From: Pseudoflavonifractor sp. An184
GTDB lineage: Bacteria > Bacillota > Clostridia > Oscillospirales > Oscillospiraceae
Assembly: GCF_002160305.1 (NCBI RefSeq)
Contig: NZ_NFKI01000006.1
Span: 20,145 to 84,144, forward strand
Direction: 5' to 3'
Length of the DNA stretch: 64,000 nt
Below the pieces are notes generated by a model. That model was not told where the DNA came from and did no database searches. It saw nothing but the letters and a program-made list of their open reading frames with translations. Each line of letters begins with the position of its first letter. Within the stretch, counting starts at the first letter, position 1. Below are positions 22,669 to 39,899 of this stretch, piece by piece. Both the position numbers and the translations under genes were made by a program.

Positions 22669-22670
22669 CC

Positions 22671-23240: not shown

Positions 23241-23399
23241 AAGTTGACCGGCGGCGAGGCCCGGTAGCTCCTGGCCCAGTGGGAGCGGGTGGAGAAGGAG
23301 ATCGCAGCCCTGCGGGTGGAGCTGAAAAAGGAGACCCAGTTCAGCCGGAAAGTGGAGCTGAATATGAAGATCAAGAAATTGGAGAACTCGGGTAAATAA
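23241..23399 (+). pseudogene. Remnant of a DUF4391-type type III RM accessory gene
   Basis: The frame reads KLTGGEAR, a TAG stop at 23265, then LLAQWERVEKEIAALRVELK, ETQFSRKVELNMKIKKLE and a TAA. This is the coiled C-terminus typical of DUF4391 proteins, which usually sit between mod and res of type III systems. The N-terminal part is missing and a stop interrupts the rest. It shows that the restriction locus was reshuffled. Confidence 0.7.
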
Positions 23400-23401
23400 A
23401 A

Positions 23402-24220
23402 ATGAATGAGAAATTAAAGGAGCTATGTGAAAGTATTACACAGCATATAAGACGAGCGCCATATAAATGGGGCTTCTGGTGCGTTACAATCACTTTTATT
23501 TTGATTCCATTACTTATCTGGATCTTATATTTTATAGGTGATAATTGCCGTATCTTGATAAATACAAGTTTATCTGTCGGAGAGGCGCTTGGATTCTATG
23601 GCGCATCATTAGCAGCTATAGGAACAATCGCTTTAGGTGTTGTATCAATTATACAGAATAATCGAGCCACGCAGCTAAACTTGAAATTGATAGAAGAGCA
23701 ACACAGGGCACAACTCCCTGTTTTCAGCGTCTTAAATACTACAGATTTAAGATACAAAATTGAAGATCAAAAATGGGATATTGGTTTTTTACACGGAGCT
23801 GATATTGGCTTTGAACTACAGAATAGTGCTATTGGCGGGCATGAAATAGGGTATATTACATTTGGGCTAAAAAATATTTCAAATTTCCAGATCTATGGGC
23901 TTAAAATTGTGAAAGCTACGCTCCATACGATAGGAGGAACTGATTTCCAAAGGTTTATGCCTGTATTTGAAGCACAAAATGGTATGGCGTCGGAGGAAAC
24001 GAAAAAAATTAGTGTTTCATTTATTGCTTCATCCCACAATTTTATGGGGATAGATAAGAACAAGGTTCAAATCAATCTTGCTTTTGAGTGTTATAACCCC
24101 CAGAACTATCGAGTCCAATTTCATATAAGTTTTATAATTTATAACGGAAAACTCAGAAGCCTTGGAGAACAAGTACTTTCAGAATATTGCAAGGAGGCCA
24201 CCACAGATGACAAAACTTGA
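23402..24220 (+). CDS. Two-TM membrane protein of unknown function next to type III RM
   Basis: 272 residues, AT-rich. Two hydrophobic segments (about 24-46 and 62-84) are followed by a cytoplasmic domain of about 170 residues that begins with a short coiled stretch (IIQNNRATQLNLKLIEEQHRAQLP) and continues as beta-rich sequence. No enzymatic motif is seen. It starts 2 bases after the DUF4391 remnant and overlaps the mod start by 14 bases, so it is co-transcribed with the restriction system. A membrane-associated defence helper is possible from context only. Confidence 0.7.
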   Translation: MNEKLKELCESITQHIRRAPYKWGFWCVTITFILIPLLIWILYFIGDNCRILINTSLSVGEALGFYGASLAAIGTIALGVVSIIQNNRATQLNLKLIEEQHRAQLPVFSVLNTTDLRYKIEDQKWDIGFLHGADIGFELQNSAIGGHEIGYITFGLKNISNFQIYGLKIVKATLHTIGGTDFQRFMPVFEAQNGMASEETKKISVSFIASSHNFMGIDKNKVQINLAFECYNPQNYRVQFHISFIIYNGKLRSLGEQVLSEYCKEATTDDKT

Positions 24221-26162: not shown

Positions 26163-26173
26163 GGAAAGAAAGT

Positions 26174-27052
26174 ATGAGACAGAGAATTTCAGAAAAAAAT
26201 AAATTCCCTTCCTTTGATTTATTTGATGAATATCAAAAGTTGGAAGCTATTTTTTCAAATTGGCGCACCATGGGTACATATGATGAATGGAGAACTCGAA
26301 AGCCGCCTATGTATACTTTTGAGGACTATATTCGCGATCTGCAATTTGAAAACTGGAATCTGCGGGGAACATTTATCAATTTACAGGAGATGCGTTCCAA
26401 ACTCAACATTGCGCCAGAAGATTTTGTAGAAAAAAAGGTTTCTGAAGAACAATTATTAGATTTCATACAATTTCTCTTGAATTGTTGGTTGCGGATTCAC
26501 GCAACTATCGAAACAGCACAAGCACATGCAATAGCATATATCGCAGACAAAAATGCGCTTGAAATGCTATTCCAAAATTGTAAATATCTTTTGGAAAAAT
26601 TTCATTGCAAATGTCAGGTAGACGAAGAAAACAATGAAGTATATGTGATTTTCAAAGATGATTTAGCGACAATCATTTCCCAGAAAGATCCTGATGTTGA
26701 ACCCAGCCTGACCGAATATAATCGAATTGATAATTGTGGAAATATAAGGCGAAAAGGTGAGATACTTTGTACGCTATCTAAGAAATTAGAAGCTGTAGAA
26801 TCGCAAATCAAAGGAACAGAATTTTATCCTCTCTATAACGATACTACCTTTTTGCTTAACAAAATCGGCGCCCGACATTGGACGGGAAAAGATAAATTAG
26901 CCAATGCTACTTTTATGAAAATGTCACCAGACGAACTTGAAAAATGGTATGATACAACATTCAACTTAGTTGTGTCTTGCCTTGCTGCAGTTCCATATTT
27001 AACGGCTAAGGATAAAATCAAGGAAATTAAGCAGACGGGGGTTGACAAATGA
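26174..27052 (+). CDS. Unknown AT-rich gene inserted between mod and res
   Basis: 292 residues with no motif I can name. It is rich in helices and aromatic/charged residues, with segments such as WLRIHATIETAQAHAIAYIA and NKIGARHWTGKDKLANATFM. It looks soluble. Codon use is AT-rich compared with mod and res. It starts 11 bases after mod and overlaps the res start (ATGA), so it is translated as part of the operon. The place is normally taken by DUF4391, whose remnant lies upstream of mod. An anti-phage accessory role is plausible but not shown by sequence. Confidence 0.7.
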   Translation: MRQRISEKNKFPSFDLFDEYQKLEAIFSNWRTMGTYDEWRTRKPPMYTFEDYIRDLQFENWNLRGTFINLQEMRSKLNIAPEDFVEKKVSEEQLLDFIQFLLNCWLRIHATIETAQAHAIAYIADKNALEMLFQNCKYLLEKFHCKCQVDEENNEVYVIFKDDLATIISQKDPDVEPSLTEYNRIDNCGNIRRKGEILCTLSKKLEAVESQIKGTEFYPLYNDTTFLLNKIGARHWTGKDKLANATFMKMSPDELEKWYDTTFNLVVSCLAAVPYLTAKDKIKEIKQTGVDK

Positions 27053-30039
27053 AACTCCAATTTGAAGCCAACCTCCAATATCAGGAGCAAGCAGTTTCCG
27101 CTGTGGTAGATCTCTTTCGCGGCCAGACGCCAAAACGGAGCGTATTCACCGTCACAATGGAGGATGACGCAGGGCAGATGACCACAGATAACGGTATTGC
27201 CAACAAGCTGGAACTGATCGAGGATGAGATCCTGGAAAACCTCCAGGCGGTGCAGTTGCGCAACGGCCTGCCCCAGGCCAAGATGCTGAAAAAAGGGGCC
27301 TGTGATTTTGACATTGAGATGGAGACTGGCACCGGAAAGACCTATGTCTATCTGCGCACCATCTTTGAACTGAACAAGGCCTACGGTTTTAAAAAGTTCA
27401 TCATTGTGGTGCCAAGCATCGCAATTAAAGAGGGAGTGGCCAAGTCCCTGGAGATCACCAAGGAACACTTCCAGACCATCTATAACAATGTGGTCTATGA
27501 CACCTATATTTACGATGGCAGCAAGCCGGAGGAGGTACGCTCTTTCGCTGTCAATGATAACATCTCCATTATGGTCATCAATATCGCCGCCTTTCGAAAG
27601 AGCTTTGACGATCCGGAGAAAGAAAATAAGGCCAATATTATCCACCGGGCCATTGACAAACTTAACGGAATGCGCCCCATCAGCCTGATCCAGGAGACCA
27701 ATCCAATCGTCATCGTGGACGAGCCCCAGAGCGTAGAGGGCAAAGGCGCCACGGCCTCTAAAAAAGCTATGGAATCCCTCAACGCCCTGTGTACCCTGCG
27801 TTACTCCGCCACCCATGTGGAAAAGCACAATTTGGTATACAAACTGGACGCGGTGGACGCCTTCGATCTGGAGTTGGTAAAGCAGATCGAGGTAGCCAGC
27901 TTTGAGAGTCTGGACTACCACAACAAGGCGTATATGAAACTGTTGTCGGTGGACAACAAGAAGTCTCCCATTACGGCCAAAATCGAGTTGGACTGTGAGG
28001 TCAAGGGTACGATCAAGCGCAAAGCGGTAACCGTGCGCCAGGGGGACGACCTGTCCGAGAAGCTGTCCGGCTATCGGGAAGTGTACAACGGCTATGTGGT
28101 AGACGACATCTATTGTGAGAAGGGCAATGAGTATGTCAGCTTTACCACCAAACCGGAGATCCTGCGGATCGGTGAGGCGGTGGGCGACATTGATGACCGG
28201 GCCATCAAGGAACAGCAGATCCGCAAGACCATTGAGGAGCACCTGAACAAGGAACTGGTTCTGAACCGCCGGGGCATTAAGGTGCTGAGCCTATTCTTCA
28301 TCGACAAAGTGTCCAACTACCGCTATTACGACACTGATGGGGTGCGCCACAACGGTATCTACGCCGACATGTTTGAGAAGAACTATCGGGAACTGATCCA
28401 GCGGCCCAAGTATCGGACGCTGTTTCAGGATCAGGACATTGATTTGGAGTCCCTGCCCCATGAGGTGCATGGAGGATATTTTTCCGGCGACAAGAAGGGC
28501 GGAAACTCTGACAAGGAGTGGAAGGACACCAGCGGCACTACGGCTGTAGACGAGTCGGCCTACAACTTGATCATGCGCGACAAAGAAAAGCTACTGTCCT
28601 TTGACAGTAAGCTCCGTTTCATTTTCTCTCACTCAGCCTTGCGGGAGGGCTGGGATAACCCCAATGTATTTCAGATCTGCACCTTGAATGAGACGAAAAG
28701 CGAAGTTAAAAAGCGTCAGGAAATTGGACGTGGCCTACGGTTATGTGTCAATCAGAACGGTGAGCGGCAGCATGGTTTTGCTATCAACACGCTGACTGTC
28801 ATGGCCAATGAGAGTTATGAAAGGTTTGCCGCAACCTTGCAGAAAGAATATGAGCAGGATGAGGGTATCCGCTTTGGCCTTCTGGAAAGCCACAGCTTTG
28901 CCAATATTCCCATTCAGCAGCCGGACGGTTCTATGGCTTATCTGGGTGCTGAGAAGTCAGAACATATCTATCAGGCATTCAAAGAGTGCGGCTACCTGGA
29001 CGAAAAGGACAAGGTGACCGATGCGCTGAAGATTGCACTGAAAATGAATACCCTGCAGGTTCCAGTGGAGCTGGTCGAGCATAAGCATGCCATCGCCGGT
29101 GTATGCAAGAAGGCTGCCAGTGGCCTGAATATCAAACCTGCAAATGATAAGCGGACAGTTCACCTGAACAAAGAGCGTTTTCTGAGCGAGGAATTCAAGG
29201 AACTCTGGGATCGAATCAAATACAAGACGACATACAGGGTAGATTTTGACTCTGAAAAGCTGGTAGAACAGTGCTGCGAGAAGATGCAGTTGGATCTGGA
29301 TGTAGGGGCGGCCAAGTTGATGTACACCAAAGCGAAGGTGCAGGTGTCCGAGGGCGGTGTGGACACCACTGAAACCCAACGGCTCTCCGTAAAGACCACC
29401 GATGGCAAGGAGCAGTTGCCTGACATCATCACTTATCTGCAAAATCGAACTGGCCTGACCCGCAGAACCATCGTAAAGATCCTGACTGAGAGCAAGACGC
29501 TTAATCTGTTCAAAAAGAATCCCCAGGCGTATATGGATCAAGTAGCGAAGTTGATCAGTTCCACTATGCAACTCTTCATTTTGGATGGCATCAAATACAC
29601 AAAATTGGGGGACACAGAGTTCTATGCCCAGGAACTCTTTGACTCAGAGGAACTCACCGGATACCTTGAGCGAAATATGTTTGAGAGCCATCGTTCTGTC
29701 TATGACTATGTGGTCTATGACAGCGATGTGGAACACGGATTTGCGGAAAAGCTTGAAAGCAACGAAAGTGTAAAAGTATATGCCAAACTTCCCAATTGGT
29801 TCAAGGTTCCCACGCCCCTCGGTAGCTACAACCCGGATTGGGCTGTCGTCATTGAGGATAATGGACTCAATAAACTCTACTTTGTTGTAGAAACGAAGGG
29901 AAGTATTGAGGGCAAGGATCTTCGTCCTAAAGAACAAGCAAAGATTCGGTGCGGAGAAAAACATTTTGCCGCTCTTGGTAATGATGCAAAGTTCATGAAA
30001 GCTGATAGTTTCCAAAGGTTTACCGAGCGTTTGGTTTAA
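27049..30039 (+). CDS. res: Type III restriction enzyme subunit Res
   Basis: 996 residues. A superfamily 2 helicase/translocase with an endonuclease end. Walker A is METGTGKTYVYLRTIFEL (about residue 90), the DEAD-type box is IVIVDEPQSVEG (about 223), motif V/VI are SALREGWDNPNVFQI and KRQEIGRGLRLCV (about 530-565). The C-terminal PD-(D/E)xK nuclease motif reads YNPDWAVVIED ... YFVVETKGS (about 928-950). It needs the Mod subunit to recognise unmethylated sites. All motifs are intact, so the system looks functional. It overlaps the preceding gene by 4 bases. Confidence 0.93.
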   Translation: MKLQFEANLQYQEQAVSAVVDLFRGQTPKRSVFTVTMEDDAGQMTTDNGIANKLELIEDEILENLQAVQLRNGLPQAKMLKKGACDFDIEMETGTGKTYVYLRTIFELNKAYGFKKFIIVVPSIAIKEGVAKSLEITKEHFQTIYNNVVYDTYIYDGSKPEEVRSFAVNDNISIMVINIAAFRKSFDDPEKENKANIIHRAIDKLNGMRPISLIQETNPIVIVDEPQSVEGKGATASKKAMESLNALCTLRYSATHVEKHNLVYKLDAVDAFDLELVKQIEVASFESLDYHNKAYMKLLSVDNKKSPITAKIELDCEVKGTIKRKAVTVRQGDDLSEKLSGYREVYNGYVVDDIYCEKGNEYVSFTTKPEILRIGEAVGDIDDRAIKEQQIRKTIEEHLNKELVLNRRGIKVLSLFFIDKVSNYRYYDTDGVRHNGIYADMFEKNYRELIQRPKYRTLFQDQDIDLESLPHEVHGGYFSGDKKGGNSDKEWKDTSGTTAVDESAYNLIMRDKEKLLSFDSKLRFIFSHSALREGWDNPNVFQICTLNETKSEVKKRQEIGRGLRLCVNQNGERQHGFAINTLTVMANESYERFAATLQKEYEQDEGIRFGLLESHSFANIPIQQPDGSMAYLGAEKSEHIYQAFKECGYLDEKDKVTDALKIALKMNTLQVPVELVEHKHAIAGVCKKAASGLNIKPANDKRTVHLNKERFLSEEFKELWDRIKYKTTYRVDFDSEKLVEQCCEKMQLDLDVGAAKLMYTKAKVQVSEGGVDTTETQRLSVKTTDGKEQLPDIITYLQNRTGLTRRTIVKILTESKTLNLFKKNPQAYMDQVAKLISSTMQLFILDGIKYTKLGDTEFYAQELFDSEELTGYLERNMFESHRSVYDYVVYDSDVEHGFAEKLESNESVKVYAKLPNWFKVPTPLGSYNPDWAVVIEDNGLNKLYFVVETKGSIEGKDLRPKEQAKIRCGEKHFAALGNDAKFMKADSFQRFTERLV

Positions 30040-30154
30040 GAATTGCACTGCTGAAACGAAGGATTGAGGTACATTATGTATCCCAATCCTTTGTTCTGCC
30101 AGAAGGGGGCGATTCACTTTCCGCCGTGACAAAGAGAAAGTGCAAATTCAAATA

Positions 30155-30183
30155 TTGACGGCAGGGAACGCTTGTTCTAAAAT
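30155..30183 (+). promoter_or_regulatory. Sigma-A promoter with embedded LexA (DinR) box
   Basis: TTGACG (30155-30160), a 17-bp spacer and TAAAAT (30178-30183). Within the spacer GAACGCTTGTTC (30166-30177) fits the Gram-positive SOS box GAAC-N4-GTTC. A bound LexA would block the polymerase, so the downstream genes should be induced by DNA damage. Confidence 0.72.
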
Positions 30184-30377
30184 ATGATCAGGCGAAAGCC
30201 TAAAACTCGTAGCTTTCCGGTGAGGTCCACACCCCGGTGGGACCTCAGACATTCATGGGCCTCGTAGGGCACCACAACCACCCTGTACGAAGGGAACTTC
30301 CATGAAGGTCTTCAGTATTTGGCGCTGTGCCGGCAGCGCGGGTGTGCGCCTTTCCGTGGAAAGCGGAAAGGATGCAA
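30184..30377 (+). other. Structured leader before the element operon
   Basis: About 190 untranslated bases contain a hairpin GAGGTCCCAC/GGTGGGACCTC-like pair near 30221-30246 and a second GCCTTTCCGTGGAAAGC-type hairpin just before the ribosome site near 30350. No reading frame with a start site is seen. A post-transcriptional role is possible. Confidence 0.45.
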
Positions 30378-30767
30378 ATGAACGACTCTGTCGCGATTAC
30401 CTATAGTGGCCAGCAAGTATCAGTGCCAAAGGAGGTCGCAGACTTCCTGGAGCAGGATCGGAAGCGGGAACAGGCGCAGGAGAAACGGGACCAAAGGCAT
30501 CTGAGTAGAAGTGAGTTTGAAACGGTGCTGTTCTGTTCGGATTGTGTCAGGCGTCCCGTGGAGGATGCTGTACTCCGGAACCTCCAGCTTGAAACTCTGC
30601 GGAAAGCCGTCGGTGATCTTGGTGACCAGGGCCGGGATCTGATCCAGCTCCGATATGGCAGAGGCCTGACCATGGAGGAGATCGGGACGATCTACGGCGT
30701 ATCCAAGGCGTCGGTATCAAAGCGGCTGAAAAAGCTCCACGAACAGCTGAGGGGCTCTGTCTCATGA
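30378..30767 (+). CDS. Sigma-70 region 4-like HTH protein
   Basis: 129 residues. The N-terminal half is charged and helical (KEVADFLEQDRKREQAQEKR). The C-terminal 70 residues match sigma factor region 4: LGDQGRDLIQLRYGRGLTME, then EIGTIYGVSKASVSKRLKKL as helix-turn-helix. Small proteins of this kind are common in Clostridial integrative elements and act as element-specific activators or sigma-like factors. ATG 30378 was chosen because GGAAAGGA lies 6-7 bases before it; an ATG at 30372 is too close. It is the first gene after the SOS-type promoter. Confidence 0.8.
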   Translation: MNDSVAITYSGQQVSVPKEVADFLEQDRKREQAQEKRDQRHLSRSEFETVLFCSDCVRRPVEDAVLRNLQLETLRKAVGDLGDQGRDLIQLRYGRGLTMEEIGTIYGVSKASVSKRLKKLHEQLRGSVS

Positions 30768-30788
30768 CAGAGTCCCTCAGCTATTTTT
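30746..30788 (+). terminator. Terminator after the sigma-like gene
   Basis: GCTGAGGGGCTCTGTC pairs with GACAGAGTCCCTCAGC, followed by ATTTTT. It overlaps the end of the coding region. Confidence 0.88.
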
Positions 30789-30991
30789 GTTCTCTGAATT
30801 GTATTGTTCCAAGGCTCCGCTCCTGTCCACACTGGACGGGAGCAAAATTTTTAAAAATATTTTTTATTTTTGGGTTTACAAACCGCCTCTAAGTGTCCTG
30901 ATAAGTAGAGGGTGATTTTCCGGCACTCGGAAACCTGACCTTGGCCGTAGTCAGGGGAACCCAGATCAAAATACACAGAGGAGCGATGACG

Positions 30992-31354
30992 ATGGATTTA
31001 TTTGGTACAAGGCAAAAACAACTGCTGCATTTCCTGACTGCCGATGCTGAGAAGGAAACTCTGGACTATGTCCTTCAGGAGATGCGGGAAGTTCTGGGGG
31101 AAGAGATGCCGGAGGAGGACGCGGTGCGAGCCTATCTGCAAGACCCGGACAAACCCACGAAGCTCAGCACAGAACAACAGATCGTGGTGATCGATAAGCT
31201 GCTGGAGTGTGCGGAGGTCAATCTCCGAACACTCTGTGATCTGATTCGTTACCAGCAACTCAAAGATGCCGGTGTAGTCAACTCCGTAAGGGAGTTCCTG
31301 CGTCTGGTCCATCCAGATGATGTCCGCGATATTTCAAAGGAGGATGCCGATTGA
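30992..31354 (+). CDS. Small helical protein of unknown function
   Basis: 120 residues, MDLFGTRQKQLLHFLTADAE onwards, all-helical in appearance with many Glu, Leu and Asp. No motif I know. ATG 30992 was chosen because AGAGGAG lies 8 bases upstream. It overlaps the excisionase-like gene by 4 bases and so belongs to the regulatory/mobilisation operon of the element. Confidence 0.65.
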   Translation: MDLFGTRQKQLLHFLTADAEKETLDYVLQEMREVLGEEMPEEDAVRAYLQDPDKPTKLSTEQQIVVIDKLLECAEVNLRTLCDLIRYQQLKDAGVVNSVREFLRLVHPDDVRDISKEDAD

Positions 31355-31560
31355 AAGAATCCGAATACAAGTTCTACGATGACCTGCCGCTGTTTCTCAA
31401 CGCGGATACAGTAGGGAAGGTGCTGGGAGTGTTGCCCGCCAGTACCTATGAACTGATGCACGAGCCGGACTTCCCGATGCTGCGCGTCGGCAGCAGGATG
31501 GTAGTACCAAAGGAACAGTTCATCCAGTGGGTGAACGAGCACACGGGAGGCGGCGTATGA
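31351..31560 (+). CDS. Excisionase-like small HTH protein
   Basis: 69 residues. It has the winged-helix pattern of the excisionase/HTH_17 family: LFLNADTVGKVLGVLPASTY, then FPMLRVGSRMVVPKEQFIQWV. The usual role is to bend DNA at the attachment arms and steer the recombinase to excision. It has a TTG start with AAAGGAGG upstream and 4-base overlaps with both neighbours. Confidence 0.83.
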   Translation: MKESEYKFYDDLPLFLNADTVGKVLGVLPASTYELMHEPDFPMLRVGSRMVVPKEQFIQWVNEHTGGGV

Positions 31561-31931
31561 GGTACAGCAAGTACAGTGGCCGGGGTAATTTTTTCTCTCT
31601 GCCCAATGAGATTTTCCAGCTTGGACTGAACGCCGGTGAACTGTCGGTGTACTGCTTTCTGCGTCGGTGTGAAAACCACAGGACCCACCAGTGCTGGCCC
31701 AGCATCCGAACCATCGGAGAAGCAGTGGGCATGAGTGAAAACACTGTCCGCAAGTACATCCGGCAGCTGGAGGAGCGTGGATTCGTCACCACAGAACCCA
31801 CAGAGGTAATCACTAAACACAACGGCCGGCGCAATGGCAATCTGCTGTTCACCCTCCGTCCGATCCAGGAGGTGGTCGACCAGTATTACGACCGGCAGAT
31901 GGAGGAACTGGAACTGGCCACCGAGCGCTAG
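31557..31931 (+). CDS. Helix-turn-helix protein resembling replication initiators of integrative elements
   Basis: 124 residues. NFFSLPNEIFQLGLNAGELS and WPSIRTIGEAVGMSENTVRK followed by YIRQLEERGFVTTEPT form a GntR/RepA-like winged helix that opens many element-borne initiator and regulator proteins. Only this domain is present. ATG 31557 overlaps the previous stop by 4 bases (ATGA). A role in element replication or regulation is inferred. Confidence 0.75.
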   Translation: MRYSKYSGRGNFFSLPNEIFQLGLNAGELSVYCFLRRCENHRTHQCWPSIRTIGEAVGMSENTVRKYIRQLEERGFVTTEPTEVITKHNGRRNGNLLFTLRPIQEVVDQYYDRQMEELELATER

Positions 31932-32287
31932 CGTGTGGCGAAGCTCCTGCGAGAACAGGAAAGCCCAGCGTGACTGCTTGCGGGCCCCTGTGTGCCCTGA
32001 TTGCGGGAGGGGCAGAGTCCCTGCCCCTCCCGGCGGTTCCAAGCCGGATTTGGGGCAGTTTCACGGCCCTTATAGGGGACGAAAGGAAAAGCAGGATAAA
32101 GGACAGGCGTCAAGACCGCCGCTCTGCCCAGTCACATCTGCCCGCAGTGCGGGCAGTTCCGAGCGTTTCCCAGGTGGTCGGAATTGGGGTCAAATCCAGA
32201 AAGAAAAAATGATTCTGCGGTCACATTCCCCGAACGCCTACTGCCATAAGAAGAAAATAGGGGTCATACCCCGGAAAGGAGCCTATT
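31932..32287 (+). other. Gap with inverted repeats, candidate oriT
   Basis: 356 bases without a supported gene lie directly before mobC and the relaxase. CTGCCCGCA/TGCGGGCAG (32138-32156) and GGGGT-CAT-ACCCC (32260-32272) are inverted repeats. The transfer origin of mobilisable elements is usually just upstream of mobC, so this is the best candidate; no nick site could be identified. Confidence 0.45.
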
Positions 32288-32707
32288 TTGAGCCGAAAAG
32301 AGAAGTTTGCCTTTTACCTGACGCCGGAGAAGAAAGTACTCCTGGAACGACGGTATCAGGAGGACGGAAGCCGGAGTCTCACTGCTTTTATCGAAAACGC
32401 CGTGGACTTTTACCTGGACTACCTCAGCGCCAACAGTGCCGGACTATTCCTCCCTACTTCCCTCAAGTCCTATCTGGACGGGCGGCTGGGACGGTTGGAG
32501 GACCGGCTGTCCTCGCTCATATTCAAACAGGCGGTGGAGCAGGACATGGTAGCCGGCATCCTGGCAGATGCGTTTCAGTTCAGCGAAGATGACTTGCACC
32601 GCCGGCGAGCGGAGAGTGTTAACAATGTGAAGAAGACCAACGGTCGCATCTCACTGGAGCAGCGGGTGCGGGAAGCTTGGGAGGAGGACAATGAGTGGCA
32701 AGACTGA
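32288..32707 (+). CDS. MobC-like relaxosome accessory protein
   Basis: 139 residues. An N-terminal ribbon-helix-helix-like segment (KFAFYLTPEKKVLLERRYQE, then RSLTAFIENAVDFYLDYL) is followed by helices, the layout of plasmid/ICE mobilisation proteins that bind oriT and help the relaxase. TTG start with AAAGGAG 6 bases upstream. It overlaps the relaxase gene by 13 bases. Confidence 0.72.
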   Translation: MSRKEKFAFYLTPEKKVLLERRYQEDGSRSLTAFIENAVDFYLDYLSANSAGLFLPTSLKSYLDGRLGRLEDRLSSLIFKQAVEQDMVAGILADAFQFSEDDLHRRRAESVNNVKKTNGRISLEQRVREAWEEDNEWQD

Positions 32708-34650
32708 TTGTCAAAAGCCCATACCTCAAATGCGGTGGGAGCAATTCTGTCAGCGGCTACCTGCGGTACATCGGAACCAGAGAGCGTGTAGAGCTACTCC
32801 CAGGTAACCGTCCGCCCACCAGAAAACAGGAGCAGCTCATCACAAAACTGGTAAAGGATTTTCCTAATAGCCAAGAGTTGGATGAGTATTCTGACTACGC
32901 AACCAAGCACACCAAAGCCAATGCCTCGACGTTCATCACAAGAGCACTGGAAGAAAACTGGGCAGCGGTGCAGCAGTCGGAGGGCTACATGAAGTACATC
33001 GCCACCCGACCAAGGGCGGAGCGGCTGGGGGATCACGGTCTCTTTGGTGACGAGGATGGCGTTGACTTGGCAACAACAATGGATGAATTAGATCGCTACA
33101 CCGGAAATGTGTGGACGCACATTCTCTCCCTGAAACGGGAGGATGCTGCTCGCCTTGGCTATGACAACGCCAAAGCGTGGATGAATCTACTCCGGGCCAA
33201 CCGCAATGACATCGCCGCCGCTATGAACATCCCGCCGAATCACTTCCGCTGGTACGCTGCCTACCACGATGAGGGCAAGCACCCCCATGTCCATATGATG
33301 GCATGGTCGACGGTGCCAGATGAAGCCTATCTGACGCGGGAGGGCATCCGCAAGATCAAGTCCACACTGGCCAATCAAATATTTAGGCAGGAGATGCTGC
33401 ACACCTATGAGCAAAAGTCCTACTCCCGGGATGAACTGGTGTGGGAAGCCCGCCGTGCAATCCATCGTCTTATCCAGGAGATGGCCCGGAGCATCTACAC
33501 CTACCCGGAGGCGGAAGAACTGATGCAGACGCTCTCTGCACAATTGGAAACGGTCAAGGGAAAGAAGTCCTACGGCTACCTCCCCAAGCCGGTGAAGAAA
33601 ACCGTGAATGAGGTGGTGGACCGGCTGGAGGAGCTGCCGGTAGTCCGGGAGTGCTACAATCAGTGGTGTGCCCTCCAAAGTGAAGTCGACAGCTACTACC
33701 ACGACAAGACTAGAGAAAAGAAAAAGCTGTCCCAGGAGAAAGAGTTCCGGCAGATCAAGAACGCCGTCATCCAGGAGGCGGAGCGCATCCGGCTGGGGGA
33801 AATCACCTTCGAGGATGCCGACCTGACTGGCCATGATGAACCAGAACAGGGGTGGGGAGAGTCCTATGCCTGCTGGGAACTGCGGCAGATCATCCGGGAC
33901 GAGTCCCTTTCTCTGGCAGACCGGGACGACGCGGTGGAGGAATTGGAGCGGCTGGCAGAGCGAGGCGACGCCTATGCTCAATACTTGATGGGTCAGCTCT
34001 ATCGGGACGGCCATCTGCTGATCCCGGACAGTCAAAAGGCGAAAGACTGGTTCACCCAGGCGTCAGGGCATGGCCTGCCGGAGGCCCAGTATGCCCTGGG
34101 TAAGATTCTTCTCTCTAATGATCCCGAAGTCCGAGAACCGGACGAGGGCATCCGTTGGTTGAAAGAAGCGGCGGCCCAGGGAAATTCCTGGGCCGCCTAC
34201 CGGCTGGGCAAGGAGTATCTCGGCGGCGAGGTTGTGTCAAAAGATGCAACCAGAGCCACAGCGTGGCTCACCCAGTCAGCGGAGGCGGGCAACCAGTACG
34301 CCCAGTACATGCTGGGCAAGCTGTACCTGACAGGGCAGGGAGTGACTCACGACCAGACCCAGGCAATGGTTTGGTTCGGCCGTTCCGCCGCCCAAGGAAA
34401 CCAGTATGCCCAACTCTTCCTGGAGCGGCAAAATGAAATCCGTCCGCCCTCCGTAATGCTGGCGGCCACCCGCCTGCTCTACCACATGAGCCGGATCTTT
34501 GAGAACCACTCTCTGCCCCAGTCCGGTGCCGGCCTGCACATCGACCGAAAGCGCCGCCAGCAGCTCCGGGAAAAGAGGATCGCGCTGGGCCACAAGCCAA
34601 ACGACCATGAGGAAGAACAAAGCCAGGGTATGACTATGAAGGGGTGGTAA
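32695..34650 (+). CDS. MobP-type relaxase with C-terminal Sel1 repeats
   Basis: 651 residues. The N-terminus ARLIVKSPYLKCGG and the metal-binding motif HDEGKHPHVHMMAWS (about residue 191) are those of MobP3/MobL-type relaxases, which nick and covalently hold oriT for conjugative transfer. A coiled section (about 290-365) is followed by Sel1/TPR-like repeats (about 400-585): AYAQYLMGQLYRDGHLL, PEAQYALGKILL, SWAAYRLGKEYLGGEVV, QYAQYMLGKLYLTGQGVTHD. Sel1 repeats bind proteins. GTG start with GAGGAGGAC upstream. No conjugation pore genes are present, so transfer would use a helper element. Confidence 0.87.
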   Translation: MARLIVKSPYLKCGGSNSVSGYLRYIGTRERVELLPGNRPPTRKQEQLITKLVKDFPNSQELDEYSDYATKHTKANASTFITRALEENWAAVQQSEGYMKYIATRPRAERLGDHGLFGDEDGVDLATTMDELDRYTGNVWTHILSLKREDAARLGYDNAKAWMNLLRANRNDIAAAMNIPPNHFRWYAAYHDEGKHPHVHMMAWSTVPDEAYLTREGIRKIKSTLANQIFRQEMLHTYEQKSYSRDELVWEARRAIHRLIQEMARSIYTYPEAEELMQTLSAQLETVKGKKSYGYLPKPVKKTVNEVVDRLEELPVVRECYNQWCALQSEVDSYYHDKTREKKKLSQEKEFRQIKNAVIQEAERIRLGEITFEDADLTGHDEPEQGWGESYACWELRQIIRDESLSLADRDDAVEELERLAERGDAYAQYLMGQLYRDGHLLIPDSQKAKDWFTQASGHGLPEAQYALGKILLSNDPEVREPDEGIRWLKEAAAQGNSWAAYRLGKEYLGGEVVSKDATRATAWLTQSAEAGNQYAQYMLGKLYLTGQGVTHDQTQAMVWFGRSAAQGNQYAQLFLERQNEIRPPSVMLAATRLLYHMSRIFENHSLPQSGAGLHIDRKRRQQLREKRIALGHKPNDHEEEQSQGMTMKGW

Positions 34651-34794
34651 CTCTCAAAATTATGATGCGGTTAACAATGAATACAGCGGCAGGCCGGAGT
34701 GCCTAAATGATAACAGTTTGATAACTATGCGCCGAGATACTAGCTATTTCCTGTTTCTGTGGTATGTTGTGTCGTTGAAAAGGAGGCGGCACAC

Positions 34795-35097
34795 ATGAGA
34801 GACACCCTGGAGAATCTGTACTTTGGAAAAATCACACCCAATGAGCAAGACATCACACCAGGTTCGGTCCTGGCAGATGCTATGGGCCGGGCGGAACAGT
34901 GCGAGGAGAGGCTCACTGCCCGGCTGGAAGGGGAGGAGAAGACTATGCTGCTCCGGCTCCTCAACGCCGAGAACGAGATCAGCAGCACCATGGCTCTGGA
35001 GAATTTTATCCTGGGTTTCCGGCTGGGGATGAGAATCGCTATCGACTCCTTGGACGAGGATGACGGGAGCCTGACTATGAACCGAGAGGAGGGATGA
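34795..35097 (+). CDS. Small conserved element protein (DUF6809-like)
   Basis: 100 residues, MRDTLENLYFGKITPNEQDI then helices (EEKTMLLRLLNAENEISSTM, NFILGFRLGMRI). It resembles short proteins found just before recombinase genes in Clostridial elements; I believe the family is DUF6809 but cannot confirm it. AAAAGGAGG precedes the start. The stop is 3 bases before the first recombinase. Confidence 0.65.
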   Translation: MRDTLENLYFGKITPNEQDITPGSVLADAMGRAEQCEERLTARLEGEEKTMLLRLLNAENEISSTMALENFILGFRLGMRIAIDSLDEDDGSLTMNREEG

Positions 35098-35100
35098 ACT

Positions 35101-36258
35101 ATGGGAAAGAGACGGCCGTCCGGCGACGGCATGGTGCGGAAACGGGAGGACGGACGGTGGGAAGGCCGCATCGTCATCGGTCACAAGGACAACGGAGAGC
35201 CCATCTTCCGGTATGTATCGGCCAAGACACAAAAGGATCTGCTGAAAAAACTCCATCAGAATATCGAGGAGTACCGGGATGTGAATCTGTGTGAGGACAG
35301 CAAGATGTCCCTGAGGGAATGGCTGGACCGCTGGCTGGAGGAGTATGTCGCCCCATCGGTGCGGCCCTCCACCCTGGAGGGATATCGAGGATACATCCAA
35401 CGAAACATCAAGCCACACCTGGGGGATAAGCCGGTGGGAAAGATTACCACAGAGGACATCCGGAAGTTGTACCGGGAGCTCCAGGCCCACGGGCGGCAGG
35501 AGGAGCACCCTCAATATGGGTACCGGCTGGCAGGCTCCACCATCCGCCGCATCCATGGCGTCCTGCATGAAGCTCTGGATGCGGCGGTGCGGGAAAATAT
35601 GATTGCCCGCAACCCCACCGAAGGCGTCACCCTGCCTAAGAAGAAAGCGGTCCCCAAACAGATCCTCAACGATGCACAGCTGGAGAGGTTTATGAAAGTC
35701 ATTCAGGAGGACAAAATCTGGCACGACTTCTTCTACACGGAGTTGACCACCGGACTGCGGCGGGGTGAGATCTGCGGCCTCATGTGGTCGGATTTCGACG
35801 AGGCTCACGGGACGCTCTCCATCCGCCGCACTGTCCACGCCCAGAAGGGTGGCAGGTTGACCACTGGTGAGACTAAGACCGGCACTGGAAAGCGGACCAT
35901 CACCCTGCCGCCCAGCACGGCCAAACTGCTGGCAGAGCGCAAGACAAAATCATACTCGGAGTGGATCTTTCCGGACCCACTGCGTCCCGAGCGCCCCATG
36001 CGACCCAATGCCGCTTACATCTACCTGAAAGAACTGCTGAAACAGGCCGGACTGCCTAGCATCCGATTCCACGATTTGAGGCATACATTTGCCACCCACG
36101 CTCTGGCCTCCGGAGTGGACGCCAAGACCCTCTCGGGTATCCTGGGCCATACCCAGGCCTCCTTCACCCTGGACACCTACACCCATGTGACCGGGGATAT
36201 GCAGAAGCGGGCCAGCGAGATCGTGGGCAGCTTTATGGAAAACATCATGGTGAGGTGA
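35101..36258 (+). CDS. int: Tyrosine recombinase/integrase 1
   Basis: 385 residues. The arm-binding domain (GMVRKREDGRWEGRIVIGH) is followed by the core-binding domain (about 68-180) and the catalytic domain with TGLRRGEICGL (Arg I, about 219), FHDLRHTFATHAL (His-x-x-Arg, about 323), LGHTQASFTLDTYTHV (His and nucleophilic Tyr about 358). All catalytic residues are present. It abuts a second recombinase gene, 4 bases away. Confidence 0.93.
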   Translation: MGKRRPSGDGMVRKREDGRWEGRIVIGHKDNGEPIFRYVSAKTQKDLLKKLHQNIEEYRDVNLCEDSKMSLREWLDRWLEEYVAPSVRPSTLEGYRGYIQRNIKPHLGDKPVGKITTEDIRKLYRELQAHGRQEEHPQYGYRLAGSTIRRIHGVLHEALDAAVRENMIARNPTEGVTLPKKKAVPKQILNDAQLERFMKVIQEDKIWHDFFYTELTTGLRRGEICGLMWSDFDEAHGTLSIRRTVHAQKGGRLTTGETKTGTGKRTITLPPSTAKLLAERKTKSYSEWIFPDPLRPERPMRPNAAYIYLKELLKQAGLPSIRFHDLRHTFATHALASGVDAKTLSGILGHTQASFTLDTYTHVTGDMQKRASEIVGSFMENIMVR

Positions 36259-36262
36259 GCGC

Positions 36263-37837
36263 ATGTCGGGAAAGAGAAAGAAAGGGTCGGGAACCATCCG
36301 CCTTCGGAAAGACGGCCGCTGGGAGGGGCGGGTAGTTATCGGCTATGATGAGGCGGGCAGTCCAAAAACAAAAAATGTACTGGCAAAGACGAAGCGGGAG
36401 TGCGCGGAAAAGCTGAAGAAGCTGAAAGAGCAGTGCGGCGGCTTCCGCCCTGTTCAAGTCCGGCCTGAGATGCGGTTCGGGGACTGGTTAGAGTACTGGT
36501 ACCAGAACTTCTCCAAGCCAAAGCTGCGGCAAAGTACACAACTTAGTTACGAGGGATGGATCTACAACCGCCTGATCCCCGGCGTGGGAGACATCCCTCT
36601 GAACAAACTGACCCAGGCAGATCTCCAGACCTTCTTCCGCAGTATGAAAGAAGCCGGTCGGATGACTAATGTAGACAAATGCGGGAAGGGGCTGTCAGAC
36701 CGCTCAGTGCGAAGCTGCTACGCCGTCTGCCAGATGGCGCTGGACAAGGCAGTAGAGGAGCGGCTGATCCACAGCAACCCGGCCATCGGGTGCAAGCTGC
36801 CGCCCCTGAAGGGCAAGGAGATGAAAATCCTGACCCAAGAGGAGATCCAGCGGTTCCTCATTCAGGCCAAGGCGGAGGGAATGTACGAGCTGTTCCTGCT
36901 GGAGCTGACCACCGGAATGCGCCGGGGGGAACTGCTGGCCCTTCGCTGGGAGGACCTGGACTTCGCCACCGGAAAGCTCCGCATCGACAAACAGGTCAAC
37001 CCGGTAGGCGGCAAGCTAGTCATCAGCGAACCGAAAACAAAGGCCGCCAACCGCACCATTATCCTGCCGCCTGCCATGTTGGAGGTGCTGGCGGAGTACA
37101 AGAGGGGCATCTTCTCGGACTTGATGTTTCCCTCCCGCACGAAACCGAACCAGCCCATCGACCCGGGCTATGTGCGCAAACGGCTCCAGGTGATCTTAAA
37201 GCGGGCAGAGTGCAAGAGGATAAGATTCCACGCTTTACGCCATACTTTTGCAACCATGTCCCTGGAGAATGGGATGGATGTGAAAACGCTCTCAACGATC
37301 ATCGGCCATGTGTCGTCGGCCACGACACTGAATACCTACACCCACATCACCGACGAGATGTGGCAGAAAGCGGCGGTGAACATTGACCGAGGCATCGCCA
37401 AGGCGGAGGTGCAGTCAGAGCCGGAGCAGAAGGTGGAGAGACCCCATGCACAGGAAACATTCACCCCGATCCTTCCGGCCCGCCGCAGACCCGGCACGGG
37501 CTATGTCAAGCAGCTCAACGACCACCTCTGGGAGGGCAGATACTCTCCGGTGTGGCCGGACGGGAAAAAGCACTCCCGGAATGTCTATGGCCGTACGGAG
37601 GAGGAGTGTGAGGAGAAACTGAAAGCGCTGATCCTGGAAATGAATGCGGAGATCGCCGCCCTGCGTTCTGGGGCCAGCACGGAGTACCCCGACGGGGTAA
37701 GCCCCAAGAAGAAAGCCATTGCCGCATACCTGCGGGAGAATCCCGGCGTAACAAATAAATCCAAAATCGCAAGGGATTTGAACATGAATCGCACGACAGT
37801 GCAGAAATACTATGACGAGGTTCAGGCGGAGTTTTAA
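36263..37837 (+). CDS. int: Tyrosine recombinase/integrase 2 with a second arm-binding-like domain and HTH at the C-terminus
   Basis: 524 residues, about 130 longer than integrase 1. N-terminal arm-binding domain GTIRLRKDGRWEGRVVIGYD; catalytic set TGMRRGELLAL (about 216), FHALRHTFATMSL (about 322), IGHVSSATTLNTYTHI (Tyr about 357). After residue 410 a second WEGR-type domain appears (LNDHLWEGRYSPVWPDGKK, RTEEECEEKLKAL), similar to the N-terminal one. A short helix-turn-helix follows (YLRENPGVTNKSKIARDLNM). The last third is duplicated at 21148-21762. Two active recombinases side by side are unusual. Confidence 0.92.
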   Translation: MSGKRKKGSGTIRLRKDGRWEGRVVIGYDEAGSPKTKNVLAKTKRECAEKLKKLKEQCGGFRPVQVRPEMRFGDWLEYWYQNFSKPKLRQSTQLSYEGWIYNRLIPGVGDIPLNKLTQADLQTFFRSMKEAGRMTNVDKCGKGLSDRSVRSCYAVCQMALDKAVEERLIHSNPAIGCKLPPLKGKEMKILTQEEIQRFLIQAKAEGMYELFLLELTTGMRRGELLALRWEDLDFATGKLRIDKQVNPVGGKLVISEPKTKAANRTIILPPAMLEVLAEYKRGIFSDLMFPSRTKPNQPIDPGYVRKRLQVILKRAECKRIRFHALRHTFATMSLENGMDVKTLSTIIGHVSSATTLNTYTHITDEMWQKAAVNIDRGIAKAEVQSEPEQKVERPHAQETFTPILPARRRPGTGYVKQLNDHLWEGRYSPVWPDGKKHSRNVYGRTEEECEEKLKALILEMNAEIAALRSGASTEYPDGVSPKKKAIAAYLRENPGVTNKSKIARDLNMNRTTVQKYYDEVQAEF

Positions 37838-37887
37838 CGGCAGGGCACAGAGTAAGTTTAAAGAAATGTAAATAATTTGTAAAATAG

Positions 37888-37908
37888 CACTCGTGACTGG
37901 TGAGTGCC
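37888..37908. other. Inverted repeat upstream of the RT-locus promoter
   Basis: GCACTC-gtgactggt-GAGTGC stands 3 bases before the -35 box. It has no T-run, so an operator is as likely as a weak terminator for the recombinase genes. Confidence 0.45.
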
Positions 37909-37911
37909 AGT

Positions 37912-37940
37912 TGACATGATCGAAAAAATGTTCTATAATA
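37912..37940 (+). promoter_or_regulatory. Perfect consensus sigma-A promoter of the ncRNA-reverse transcriptase locus
   Basis: TTGACA (37912-37917), exactly 17 bp, TATAAT (37935-37940). All twelve positions match consensus. Transcription should start near 37947, about 320 bases before the reverse transcriptase start codon. Such strength is fitting for an abundant structural RNA rather than a rare enzyme. Confidence 0.93.
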
Positions 37941-37946
37941 AAAATG

Positions 37947-38250
37947 CCTCACACGAAAGGTGTGGGGGAGGAATATTGTTGTCAACCCTTTCTTCATAAT
38001 TTCTGTCAGGAGACTGCACAGGAGAGCTTGAAGTTGGAGTGACTGACTGGGATCCCACCAGATGGTGGCCGCCGCCAGACACATCCAGAAGGTAGTGACA
38101 CAAGCTTCCCGCTCAATTATAACATGATTGAGCATTGCAAACTGGGCAGTCGGTTTCCTTAGACACACACCAAACGGGTGAAGCAGGAGACTGCGTCAAA
38201 CTGTATATCCGCCGACTGAGGGATGCTGCCCCCCGTGTCGGCGGATATTG
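37947..38250 (+). ncRNA. Structured untranslated RNA upstream of the reverse transcriptase
   Basis: About 300 bases without a supported sense reading frame. Visible hairpins: CCTCACAC-GAAAG-GTGTGGGG (37948-37968), CCACCA-GA-TGGTGG (38055-38068), GCTCAAT/ATTGAGC (38111-38133) and a 12-bp stem ATATCCGCCGAC/GTCGGCGGATAT (38205-38248) that closes the region just before the ribosome site. The 11-base word CAGGAGACTGC occurs at 38007 and 38184. In several antiphage reverse transcriptase systems (retrons, DRT2, DRT9) an RNA encoded just upstream is the template and partner of the enzyme. The exact ends are guesses. Confidence 0.75.
38007..38194 (+). repeat. 11-base direct repeats bracketing a 177-base unit in the RNA
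   Basis: CAGGAGACTGC at 38007-38017 and 38184-38194. The unit from one repeat to the next is 177 bases, or 59 codons. Sense frames all contain stops. On the antisense strand the only stop triplets lie at 38113-38115, 38117-38119 and 38159-38161, in two of the three frames. The third frame has none and would continue without end if units were joined head to tail. An antisense extended -10 box TGTTATAAT lies at 38116-38124. Confidence 0.7.
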
Positions 38251-38268
38251 CAATTGTAAGGAGATTTC

Positions 38269-39633
38269 ATGACAAAACAGGAATGGTTGACCTCGGAAAC
38301 TGTGATAGAGAAAAGTCGAAGATCATACGCGCATTTTGATTGTCGAACGGATATTGCCCAGCAGCGGTCCTATATATCCGTCCCCCAAAATATAGAACAG
38401 CATGGGTTTTACCCATTCATACATTATCAGCAGAGACAAGTTAAATTTAATAAAGAGACTGGACCAAAAGAGAAAAAACGAGATATTTGCTATGCGTCGC
38501 ATATTGATCGCTGCATTTATCAGTATTATAGTTTCTTATTGGGGGAAAAATACAACCAGCGCGTAGTGAAAGATGGGCTATCAAATGTCGCTGTAGCATA
38601 TCGGACAGATTTACATAAAAACAATATTCATTTTGCTAAGCGAGTAATCCAGTTTATTCGTAACAACTCGCCCTGCTACATTATGATAGGAGATTTCACT
38701 GGTTTCTTTGACCACCTGGATCATGGATATTTGAAGCAGCAATGGTGCTCGCTGATGGGGGTGTCTGAACTCCCGAAAGACCACTATAAAGTGTTTCGAA
38801 GTGTGACCCGTTACAGTACATGGGAATTATCAGATTTATTAGCTTTGAACAGCCTAAAAGATAACCGGGCAGGACGTAGAACGCTGAATTCGATGTTGCG
38901 TGTGCTGACACCAGAAGAATATAAGGCTAATTCTAATAGGAAACATATCAAACCGAATCCAGATGCATTTGGGATACCACAAGGTTCCCCAATCAGTGGA
39001 CTACTTGCAAATGTTTACATGTTGGAAATAGACAAGACAGTCAATGATTTGATAACAGAGAAAAATGGCCTATATATGCGGTACAGTGATGACTTTATTG
39101 TTGTGTTGCCAGATACGGAATCAACAACTCGCCAAATTCTCAAGAATGTATCTACCAGCTTCAATAGCATTCCTGGTTTGGCATTGGAACCGAATAAGAC
39201 TCAGTATTTCCGATATGAGGACACGAAGTTAGAGAACTGCGGCTCTTTGTTTGGGGTTCCTTTGGAAGGGCAAAAGAGATTCATTAACTTCCTTGGGTTT
39301 ACTTTTGATGGTAAAACTGTATCGATTCGAATGAAAACTCTGGGTAAGTATTATTATCGAATGTACAGTAAGGCAAAGACGATACAGAAAAGTGGCAATT
39401 ATTCCCCCAAAGGAAAACACATTAGCAATAAAAATTTATATGCTCTTTATTCAATCAAAGGTGCAAAGGGAAGCTGGATTACTCAAGTGGATGGAACGCA
39501 AAAATGGCATTCAGGAAACTTCCTATCGTATGTTCAACGAGCAACAAAAGAATTTGGATCACATGAATCACTGGAACGAGGTACTAAAAACCATATGGCA
39601 AAAATACGAAGGGCACTAGAAGGGAAAAAATAA
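38269..39633 (+). CDS. Reverse transcriptase of the defence-associated (UG/DRT) type
   Basis: 454 residues. The palm motifs are MIGDFTGFFDHLDHGYLK (first catalytic Asp, about residue 141), FGIPQGSPISGLLANVYM (about 234) and MRYSDDFIVVL (catalytic YSDD, about 270). Then comes LEPNKTQYF and a thumb-like FINFLGFTFDGKTVSIR. There is no maturase or HNH domain of group II introns, no S-Q motif of diversity-generating elements, and about 130 residues before the palm. The single gene is preceded by a structured RNA and has AAGGAG 5 bases before the ATG. This layout matches antiphage DRT systems, DRT2 being my best guess; the subfamily is uncertain. Confidence 0.88.
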   Translation: MTKQEWLTSETVIEKSRRSYAHFDCRTDIAQQRSYISVPQNIEQHGFYPFIHYQQRQVKFNKETGPKEKKRDICYASHIDRCIYQYYSFLLGEKYNQRVVKDGLSNVAVAYRTDLHKNNIHFAKRVIQFIRNNSPCYIMIGDFTGFFDHLDHGYLKQQWCSLMGVSELPKDHYKVFRSVTRYSTWELSDLLALNSLKDNRAGRRTLNSMLRVLTPEEYKANSNRKHIKPNPDAFGIPQGSPISGLLANVYMLEIDKTVNDLITEKNGLYMRYSDDFIVVLPDTESTTRQILKNVSTSFNSIPGLALEPNKTQYFRYEDTKLENCGSLFGVPLEGQKRFINFLGFTFDGKTVSIRMKTLGKYYYRMYSKAKTIQKSGNYSPKGKHISNKNLYALYSIKGAKGSWITQVDGTQKWHSGNFLSYVQRATKEFGSHESLERGTKNHMAKIRRALEGKK

Positions 39634-39642
39634 TACTCAGAA

Positions 39643-39867
39643 TCTGCGCCGCTGTAAACAAGAAGAAGGGCCCCTTGAAAAAGGGCGGCCCTTCAAGTGG
39701 TCAAAGCTAAGAACCGTTTGTGGTATTTCTGTGGTCAAAACAAAAACACCTATTTTTGATAACACTTTTCGGAGGAAAAAGTAAAGAAAAAGTGCTGTTT
39801 TCGCAAGAAAACAGCACTTTTTTGGTCGGAGTGCCGGGATTCGAACCCGGGGCCTCTTGGACCCGAA
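39643..39867. repeat. Element end module, copy 2
   Basis: Nearly the same sequence as 21799-22024: GAAGGGCC/GGCCCTTC hairpin at 39665-39694, which also serves as the terminator of the reverse transcriptase gene, TGTGGTATTTCTGTGGTCA at 39719-39737, the GTGCTGTTTT hairpin and the 45-bp att core. Small differences show that the copies have diverged since the two insertions. Confidence 0.87.
39823..39867. other. Attachment site (attR) inside the tRNA-Pro gene
   Basis: The 45 bases shared with 21980-22024. They cover the tRNA from its CCA end through the T-arm, variable loop and 3' side of the anticodon arm, so integration leaves the tRNA intact. Confidence 0.92.
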
Positions 39868-39899
39868 CCAAGCGCGATACCAAGCTTCGCCACACCCCG
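39823..39899 (-). tRNA. tRNA-Pro (anticodon CGG)
   Basis: 77 bases with encoded CCA. Acceptor CGGGGTG pairs with CACTCCG (one G-U), anticodon stem CTTGG/CCAAG encloses the loop TTCGGGT with anticodon CGG (codon CCG), and the T-arm GGGTTCGAATCCC is standard. The 3' half is the integration target. Confidence 0.95.

What the first reader, a model, noticed from the sequence alone, without database searches (positions are those of the whole stretch)
38007..38194. 177-base unit between 11-base direct repeats could form an endless antisense reading frame by rolling-circle reverse transcription
Seen: CAGGAGACTGC at 38007 and 38184; 177 = 3 x 59; in the antisense strand TTA, CTA and TCA (sense view) occur only at 38113, 38117 and 38159, leaving one frame fully open. 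That frame also crosses the junction, where it reads ...ALLCSLL then LHPFGVC. It includes helix-like parts FAMLNHVIIERE and FWMCLAAATIWW. As I recall from DRT2, short repeats let the enzyme jump back on the RNA template and make concatemeric cDNA whose endless ORF (neo) encodes a toxic or protective helical protein. A stop-free frame plus a length divisible by 3 can occur by chance at a rate that is not negligible, so this is a hypothesis.
Basis: partly seen in the sequence, partly recalled or inferred. Interest (0 to 1): 0.93.

Follow-up and report, generated by a model that had tools for sequence, protein, structure and literature searches.

The report
Hidden endless gene in DRT2 RNA
Next to a DRT2-family reverse transcriptase gene on a mobile element of a Flavonifractor-like bacterium lies an RNA gene with a 159-base segment that, if copied head to tail as predicted, would form a promoter at each joint and a reading frame without stop codons, likely a phage-defence gene that exists only after copying; most relatives examined keep the same layout.

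Summary
The finding is right in kind and wrong in its boundaries. The gene downstream (38269-39633) is a Drt2 reverse transcriptase; the stretch lies in its noncoding RNA, whose first part matches Rfam RT-6. The better unit is 159 nt, 37975-38133, between two ATTG copies. Joined head to tail it gives an exact TTGACA-17-TATAAT antisense promoter, absent from the linear locus, and one stop-free antisense frame of 53 codons. A rule that ignores length and stops gave lengths divisible by 3 in 29 of 32 anchored loci, and all 29 keep that frame open; scaffold lengths show no such pattern. One of the three misses stays unexplained. The RNA has a covarying pseudoknot and tower. The jump motif is ATTG, not the published ACA, and can pair with the RNA's own 3' tail. 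I read this as a DRT2 variant of Bacillota with a likely neo gene. Copying, toxicity and phage defence are inferred from Klebsiella DRT2; nothing was tested here by experiment.

The parts
37911..37939 (+). predicted promoter of the ncRNA, TTGACA-17-TATAAT, 12 of 12
   Evidence: 3 promoter-like sites of 9/12 or better found there, 0.7 expected in shuffles
37945..38256 (+). DRT2-type noncoding RNA (5' end from promoter and RT-6 match; 3' end inferred)
   Evidence: Rfam RT-6 match 37945-38018, 57.5 bits, gathering 46.7; fold z-score -5.0
37945..37967 (+). 5' handle hairpin
   Evidence: Rfam RT-6 alignment, MFE fold
37975..38133 (-). predicted template and repeat unit, 159 nt, 53 antisense codons without stop (proto-neo)
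37975..37978 (+). jump motif copy 1, ATTG
   Evidence: microhomology of 4
37980..37985 (-). antisense -35, TTGACA
38116..38121 (-). antisense -10, TATAAT, with TG in the extended -10 position; 17 bp from the -35 across the joint only
   Evidence: best on the linear minus strand is 9 of 12 elsewhere
38111..38133 (+). [quoted passage not shown]
   Evidence: 73% of cells paired, 5 of 7 pairs with changes on both sides
38134..38139 (+). jump motif copy 2 ATTG plus CA; pairs with the RNA's 3' tail
   Evidence: MFE fold; first 5 pairs hold in 76% of cells, the sixth in only 37%
38249..38254 (+). 3' tail TGCAAU, predicted to dock on 38134-38139 as primer
   Evidence: MFE fold; 9 cells changed on both sides, 0 of 500 shuffles
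38144..38149 (+). pseudoknot strand 1, GGGCAG
   Evidence: 93% of cells paired, 5 of 6 pairs with changes on both sides (the nested MFE fold of the window alone cannot show it and pairs part of this strand elsewhere)
38226..38231 (+). pseudoknot strand 2, CUGCCC, inside the tower
38151..38193 (+). scaffold helix 38151-38158 with 38186-38193
   Evidence: 79% of cells paired, 8 of 8 pairs with changes on both sides
38205..38248 (+). tower hairpin
   Evidence: 100% of cells paired, 10 of 12 pairs with changes on both sides
38269..39633 (+). Drt2 reverse transcriptase, 454 aa
21965..39867 (.). inferred integrated mobile element that carries the system: 60-bp direct repeats 21965-22024 and 39808-39867, the right one overlapping tRNA-Pro

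Best explanation
The stretch is part of a noncoding RNA of the Rfam RT-6 kind beside a Drt2 reverse transcriptase gene, and the enzyme is predicted to copy its 159-base segment 37975-38133 again and again by re-docking on an ATTG repeat, which would build tandem DNA with a promoter at each joint and a stop-free antisense frame for a likely growth-arresting Neo protein. Shown in the sequence: the RT family, the RNA family match, the covarying pseudoknot scaffold, the ATTG copies, the exact TTGACA-17-TATAAT that appears only when the unit is joined to itself, the 53-codon stop-free frame, and the conservation of length modulo 3, frame, junction promoter and hydrophobicity in most relatives examined. 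Inferred from Klebsiella DRT2 (PMC12039810, PMC11100668): phage-triggered copying, second-strand synthesis, transcription from the joint, toxicity and abortive infection. Inferred here: the 3' tail of the RNA docks on the downstream ATTG and primes the first round; later the nascent DNA end CAAT docks on the same place.
For: RT: NCBIfam Drt2 394.1 bits (cut-off 390); PADLOC Drt2 482 bits against 72 for Drt9; best solved relative is Klebsiella Drt2 (9c0i, E 1.7e-55). RNA: RT-6 at 37945-38018, fold z -5.0, 0 of 100 shuffles as stable, 31 of 39 pairs with changes on both sides in 22 sequences, 0 of 500 shuffles on each of five measures. Unit: 39 loci given to a rule that sees neither length modulo 3 nor stops (written after one search had shown open frames in part of these loci); 32 had the 5' anchor; 29 of 32 gave a length divisible by 3 and all 29 have the same antisense frame open, 0 of 29 in either other antisense frame. 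Dereplicated at 85%, misses included: 23 of 26. With the 3 misses and L019 left out beforehand: 22 loci, 12 distinct lengths (126-192), while 12 distinct scaffold lengths fall 5/4/3 over the residues. Chance of the frame being open is 0.006-0.19 per unit. Neo frame GRAVY 0.71 on average over 22 units, other antisense frames -0.52, shuffled -0.14. The published ACA rule, ends placed by eye, on an E. coli Drt2 locus gives 117 nt and one open frame.
Against: No experiment. In the window no in-frame start has a Shine-Dalgarno match of 4 or more within the tested span (17 of 22 units have one, 5 do not: window, L058, L004, L003, L010; no shuffle control was run for this), so where translation starts is open. 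No third-position excess among substitutions (window against L058: 7, 11, 7). L071r, with an intact RT, has one in-frame stop at 147 nt and a best-scoring length of 166. For L026 no unit was found. In five Lactobacillus loci (L015, L016, L017, L020, L023) only 2 nt of jump homology remain and the -10 is 4-5 of 6. On the Photobacterium control L064 the joint rule scores an 85-nt unit as high as the 111-nt one, and on E. coli L074 it finds nothing, its -35 being a different word. Loci are related and some nearly identical, so the product of per-unit chances (10^-28.8) is not a probability.
Confidence: 0.86

Rival explanations
1. One reading: 177 nt between CAGGAGACTGC copies is the template, and the RT jumps between these repeats.
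For: Exact 11-base repeat, length divisible by 3, one open frame.
Against: None of 20 relatives has an exact copy; the second copy lies in a covarying scaffold helix; the joint makes no promoter; the 159-nt unit explains the same open frame.
Confidence: 0.03
2. Copying of a noncoding template only: the DNA product or the RNA-protein complex acts by itself, as the DNA is reported to do in DRT9, and the open frame is a by-product.
For: No codon-position signal; weak start site in the window.
Against: Lengths divisible by 3 in the template, not in the scaffold; one frame open in 29 of 29; hydrophobic bias only in that frame; in 17 of 22 units a start codon in the same frame with at least a 4-base Shine-Dalgarno match follows the -10. 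RT scores far closer to Drt2 than Drt9.
Confidence: 0.06
3. A DRT2 system in which the first round starts by another route (protein priming, or a DNA primer added to the RNA end as in Klebsiella) and the tail-ATTG pairing is only a resting clamp. This differs from the best explanation in the priming step alone.
For: Klebsiella Drt2 adds a 5-nt DNA primer to its RNA 3' end at a site inside the template (PMC12039810); the tail pairing holds in 76% of cells only; the true RNA 3' end is unknown here.
Against: The MFE fold and the covariation place the tail next to the template's 3' end.
Confidence: 0.4

Closest known systems
Klebsiella pneumoniae DRT2 (Wilkinson et al., PMC12039810; Tang et al. 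preprint, PMC11100668)
   Same: Drt2 RT directly downstream of a pseudoknotted ncRNA with 5' handle, template and 3' scaffold; unit length divisible by 3; one stop-free antisense frame; -35 and -10 joined at 17 bp across the repeat junction; hydrophobic, helix-predicted Neo.
   Different: Jump motif ATTG instead of ACA; unit 159 nt (126-192 in this clade) instead of 111-129; RT about 32% identical to an E. coli and a Photobacterium Drt2; the RNA matches Rfam RT-6, while the Photobacterium plasmid locus matches RT-12; jump motif copy 2 can pair with the RNA's 3' tail.
Rfam RF03027, RT-6 RNA
   Same: The window RNA is a member by score (57.5 bits, gathering 46.7).
   Different: The 75-nt model covers only the 5' handle and the first part of the template; nothing in the entry as returned says what the RNA does.
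DRT9 and DRT10 (PMC12483538, start of abstract seen; PMC12632851, start of abstract and passages seen)
   Same: ncRNA-templated repetitive DNA by a related RT.
   Different: DRT9 is reported to make a homopolymer and DRT10 tandem repeats, both protein-primed; what I saw names no coding role for either.

Membership tests
DRT2 | RT of the Drt2 equivalog family with YxDD active site | tested here: met
   NCBIfam NF041746 394.1 bits, cut-off 390; PADLOC; Y272-S-D-D invariant in an alignment of 11 sequences, window included
DRT2 | upstream ncRNA with 5' handle, template and pseudoknotted 3' scaffold | tested here: met
DRT2 | template bracketed by short direct repeats that allow jumping | tested here: met
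   ATTG at 37975 and 38134
DRT2 | that repeat is ACA | tested here: not met
   ATTG in this clade; ACA was described for Klebsiella-like DRT2, so this marks a variant and is not treated as defining the family
DRT2 | unit divisible by 3 with one stop-free antisense frame | tested here: met
DRT2 | promoter formed only across the junction, 17-bp spacing | tested here: met
[quoted passage not shown]
   17 of 22 units; not in the window itself
DRT2 | phage-induced concatemeric cDNA, neo mRNA, Neo toxicity, phage defence | not testable with these tools
   needs experiment
DRT9 | Drt9 RT best match | tested here: not met
   Drt9 72 bits against Drt2 482 bits

The most novel reading that the evidence does not exclude
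In the RT-6 clade of Bacillota one docking site serves two primers: the ncRNA's own 3' tail carries a copy of the cDNA repeat end (CAAU) and starts the first round on the downstream AUUG, and each finished DNA repeat (ending CAAT) then re-docks on the same AUUG. Other distant DRT2 clades would each have their own jump word (exploratory candidates GTAT, TATT, CAT, ATGA, an 8-base TGTTGCAC), so that neo genes are general in DRT2 and were hard to see only because ACA was expected.
Probability: 0.4. Interest if true: 0.7.

Novelty: new variant of a known kind. Interest (0 to 1): 0.52.

Why it matters
The Tang preprint reports that Neo annotation was more challenging in divergent DRT2 clades and raises alternative mechanisms. 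Here a Gram-positive clade, the window's RT being about 32% identical to E. coli Drt2, keeps the length, frame, promoter and hydrophobicity signatures of neo once the jump word is read as ATTG. If right, gene synthesis from RNA extends to many Bacillota (several of the relatives come from gut samples by their record titles), there is a simple rule for finding hidden genes in other clades, and there is a testable account of how template jumping is primed.

Tried and rejected
Viral contigs: one scan with the single protein found nothing, one with an alignment found one locus. Whole-genome searches: 52 of 391 class genomes matched at E 0.001 but only four, the window's own included, at 1e-100 or better; 6 of 400 in the family, 5 of 394 in the order, 4 of 398 in the phylum, 3 of 64 in the genus at 1e-30 (they overlap and include the window's own genome). 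dN/dS-like test: no signal. Neo fold of one linear unit: two helices, mean pLDDT 69, pTM 0.31; too weak for a fold search, none run. One search cut units at the -35 and not at the microhomology, so its stop counts for loci without ATTG are superseded. One row of alignment A2 (L029r) was cut short by my coordinates and has gaps in the tail.

L064 and L074 were controls. One search left out the three misses and L019 before dereplication (28 of 32 used, 22 kept); one search repeats it with all 32 (26 kept, 23 divisible by 3). L030r, L017, L071r are the three misses of the rule; the first two are open with the unit chosen by hand (147, 192), the third is not. Seven loci lack the anchor (L026, L066, L067, L069, L070, L072, L073) and were fitted by a looser, post hoc rule: 6 of 7 gave an open multiple of 3, L026 none; L069 needed an 18-bp spacer and its candidate tied for the top score, and in L073 two antisense frames are open. 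L019 is 135 by one rule and 156 by another, open in both.

Literature: I read the main text, discussion and bioinformatics section of PMC12039810; of PMC11100668 the abstract, the results sections on jumping, coding and conservation, the discussion, part 1 of the figure legends and passages; passages of PMC12596737, PMC12632851 and PMC13213688; of PMC12483538 only the start of the abstract in a search listing. The final journal version of Tang et al. is not held, nor another paper looked up by DOI. The searches list no paper on neo in this clade; the listings are capped, so that is no proof of absence. Supplementary files were not read.

Full report
What is there. The ORF at 38269-39633 is a Drt2 reverse transcriptase: NCBIfam 394.1 bits with a cut-off of 390, PADLOC Drt2 482 and 303 bits with the next family at 75; the nearest solved proteins are the Klebsiella Drt2 structures. 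Upstream, Rfam RT-6 matches 37945-38018, and a 12-of-12 promoter lies at 37911-37939, so that transcription would begin about where the RT-6 match begins.

The observation. But none of 20 relatives has an exact copy, the second copy lies in a helix of the 3' scaffold, and the 177 joint reaches at best 6 (antisense) or 7 (sense) of 12 promoter positions.

The better unit. In Klebsiella DRT2 the template ends carry an antisense -35 and -10 that come together at the repeat joint with 17 bp between them (PMC12039810). In the window the antisense TTGACA is at 37985-37980 and TATAAT at 38121-38116. With a jump between the ATTG at 37975 and the ATTG at 38134 the joint reads TTGACA-17-TATAAT, the unit is 159 nt = 53 codons, and one antisense frame is free of stops. 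On the linear minus strand of the locus the best promoter-like pair is 9 of 12 and lies elsewhere.

Comparison. After a first look at part of the loci I gave 39 loci to a rule that uses only the 5' anchor, the -10 at exactly 17 bp and the shared bases at the joint. 32 had the anchor. 29 of 32 gave a length divisible by 3; in all 29 the same antisense frame is open, in 0 of 29 either of the other two; sense frames are open in 5 and 1. The three misses: L017 and L030r are open with hand-chosen units, L071r is not. Dereplicated at 85%, 23 of 26 are divisible by 3. Without the misses and L019 there are 22 loci with 12 distinct lengths from 126 to 192. The scaffold between joint and tower, in 22 sequences, also has 12 distinct lengths, but these fall 5, 4 and 3 over the residues: indels in the template come in threes, those in the scaffold do not. 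Under dinucleotide shuffles the frame would be open in 0.6 to 19% of cases per unit; the loci are related, so these are not multiplied into a probability. The frame is hydrophobic (GRAVY 0.71 on average over 22 units, 0.58 in the window) where the other antisense frames are not (-0.52), as reported for Klebsiella. AlphaFold2 gives two helices for the single unit at low confidence. Against a strongly constrained protein: substitutions show no codon-position pattern. In 17 of 22 units a start codon in frame with a Shine-Dalgarno match of at least 4 follows the -10, in 10 of 22 one of at least 5; the window lacks it, and no shuffle control was run. The window's in-frame ATGs are at 38084-38082 and 37997-37995, plus one that spans the joint.

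Controls. An E. coli Drt2 locus (L074) with ends placed by eye at the published ACA words gives 117 nt and one open frame; my joint rule finds nothing there. On a Photobacterium plasmid locus (L064) the joint rule gives an 85-nt and a 111-nt unit with equal score; the 111-nt one is open.

The RNA. The RNA folds with z -5.0. In 22 sequences the tower pairs in 100% of cells, the pseudoknot in 93% with 5 of 6 pairs changed on both sides, the scaffold helix in 79% and the -10 hairpin in 73%; sliding the partners by 1-3 columns drops the total from 85% to 34-48%. The structure was taken from the window, which favours it over the slid versions. In the nested fold of the window, 38134-38139 pairs with 38249-38254, that is, the second ATTG with the RNA's 3' tail. 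Across the alignment the first 5 of these pairs hold in 76% of cells, with 9 cells changed on both sides and 0 of 500 shuffles as high, though the number of pairs with such a change is reached by 108 of 500 shuffles; the sixth pair holds in 37%. In L015 and L016, where the downstream motif is ATGAT or ATGAC, the tail reads GTCAT and still pairs. I infer that the tail primes the first round on the same site at which later repeats re-dock.

Known or new. The features of DRT2 that can be tested here are met, except that the jump word is ATTG and not ACA and that the start site in the window is unclear. One published survey covered 42 close relatives of Klebsiella DRT2; the other found Neo harder to annotate in divergent clades. 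The searches list no paper on neo in this clade, but the final version of Tang et al. is not held. I call it a new variant of a known kind.

Setting. The system is the last cargo of an inferred element of about 17.9 kb between 60-bp direct repeats (21965-22024, 39808-39867), the right one overlapping a tRNA-Pro gene, with a type III restriction-modification pair, a MobL relaxase and two tyrosine integrases. The An100 record is identical over the 2405 compared bases 37495-39899 and no longer matches at the same offset beyond (23-27% ungapped), which points to recent transfer.

Noticed in passing
21965-39867: Inferred integrated mobile element of about 17.9 kb at tRNA-Pro(cgg), with a type III methyltransferase (24162-26162) and restriction enzyme (27049-30039), MobL relaxase (32695-34650), two adjacent tyrosine integrases (35101-36258, 36263-37837) and DRT2.
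   Followed up: partly
37495-39899 against L001: Flavonifractor sp. An100 is identical here base for base and stops matching (ungapped, same offset) beyond the tRNA: likely recent horizontal transfer into the same tRNA site.
   Followed up: partly
L071 (minus strand): A Drt2 locus with an intact RT but a degenerate -10, a 147 or 166 nt unit and a stop in the expected frame: the only anchored locus that stays against the rule.
   Followed up: partly
L066, L067, L069, L070, L072, L073, L030: Distant DRT2 loci, two of them on phage records, one on a Lactiplantibacillus plasmid and one on a viral contig, where other short words at the joint give open units divisible by 3; exploratory and fitted post hoc.
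   Followed up: partly
L015 and L020: Two different Drt2 loci lie about 5.7 kb apart in Lactobacillus johnsonii ATCC 33200 with similar ncRNAs.
   Followed up: no
L004 and L061: RT reading frame apparently broken (L004) or short (L061, about 200 codons) while the antisense frame of the template is still open.
   Followed up: no
56594-56837: T-box leader on the + strand.
   Followed up: no
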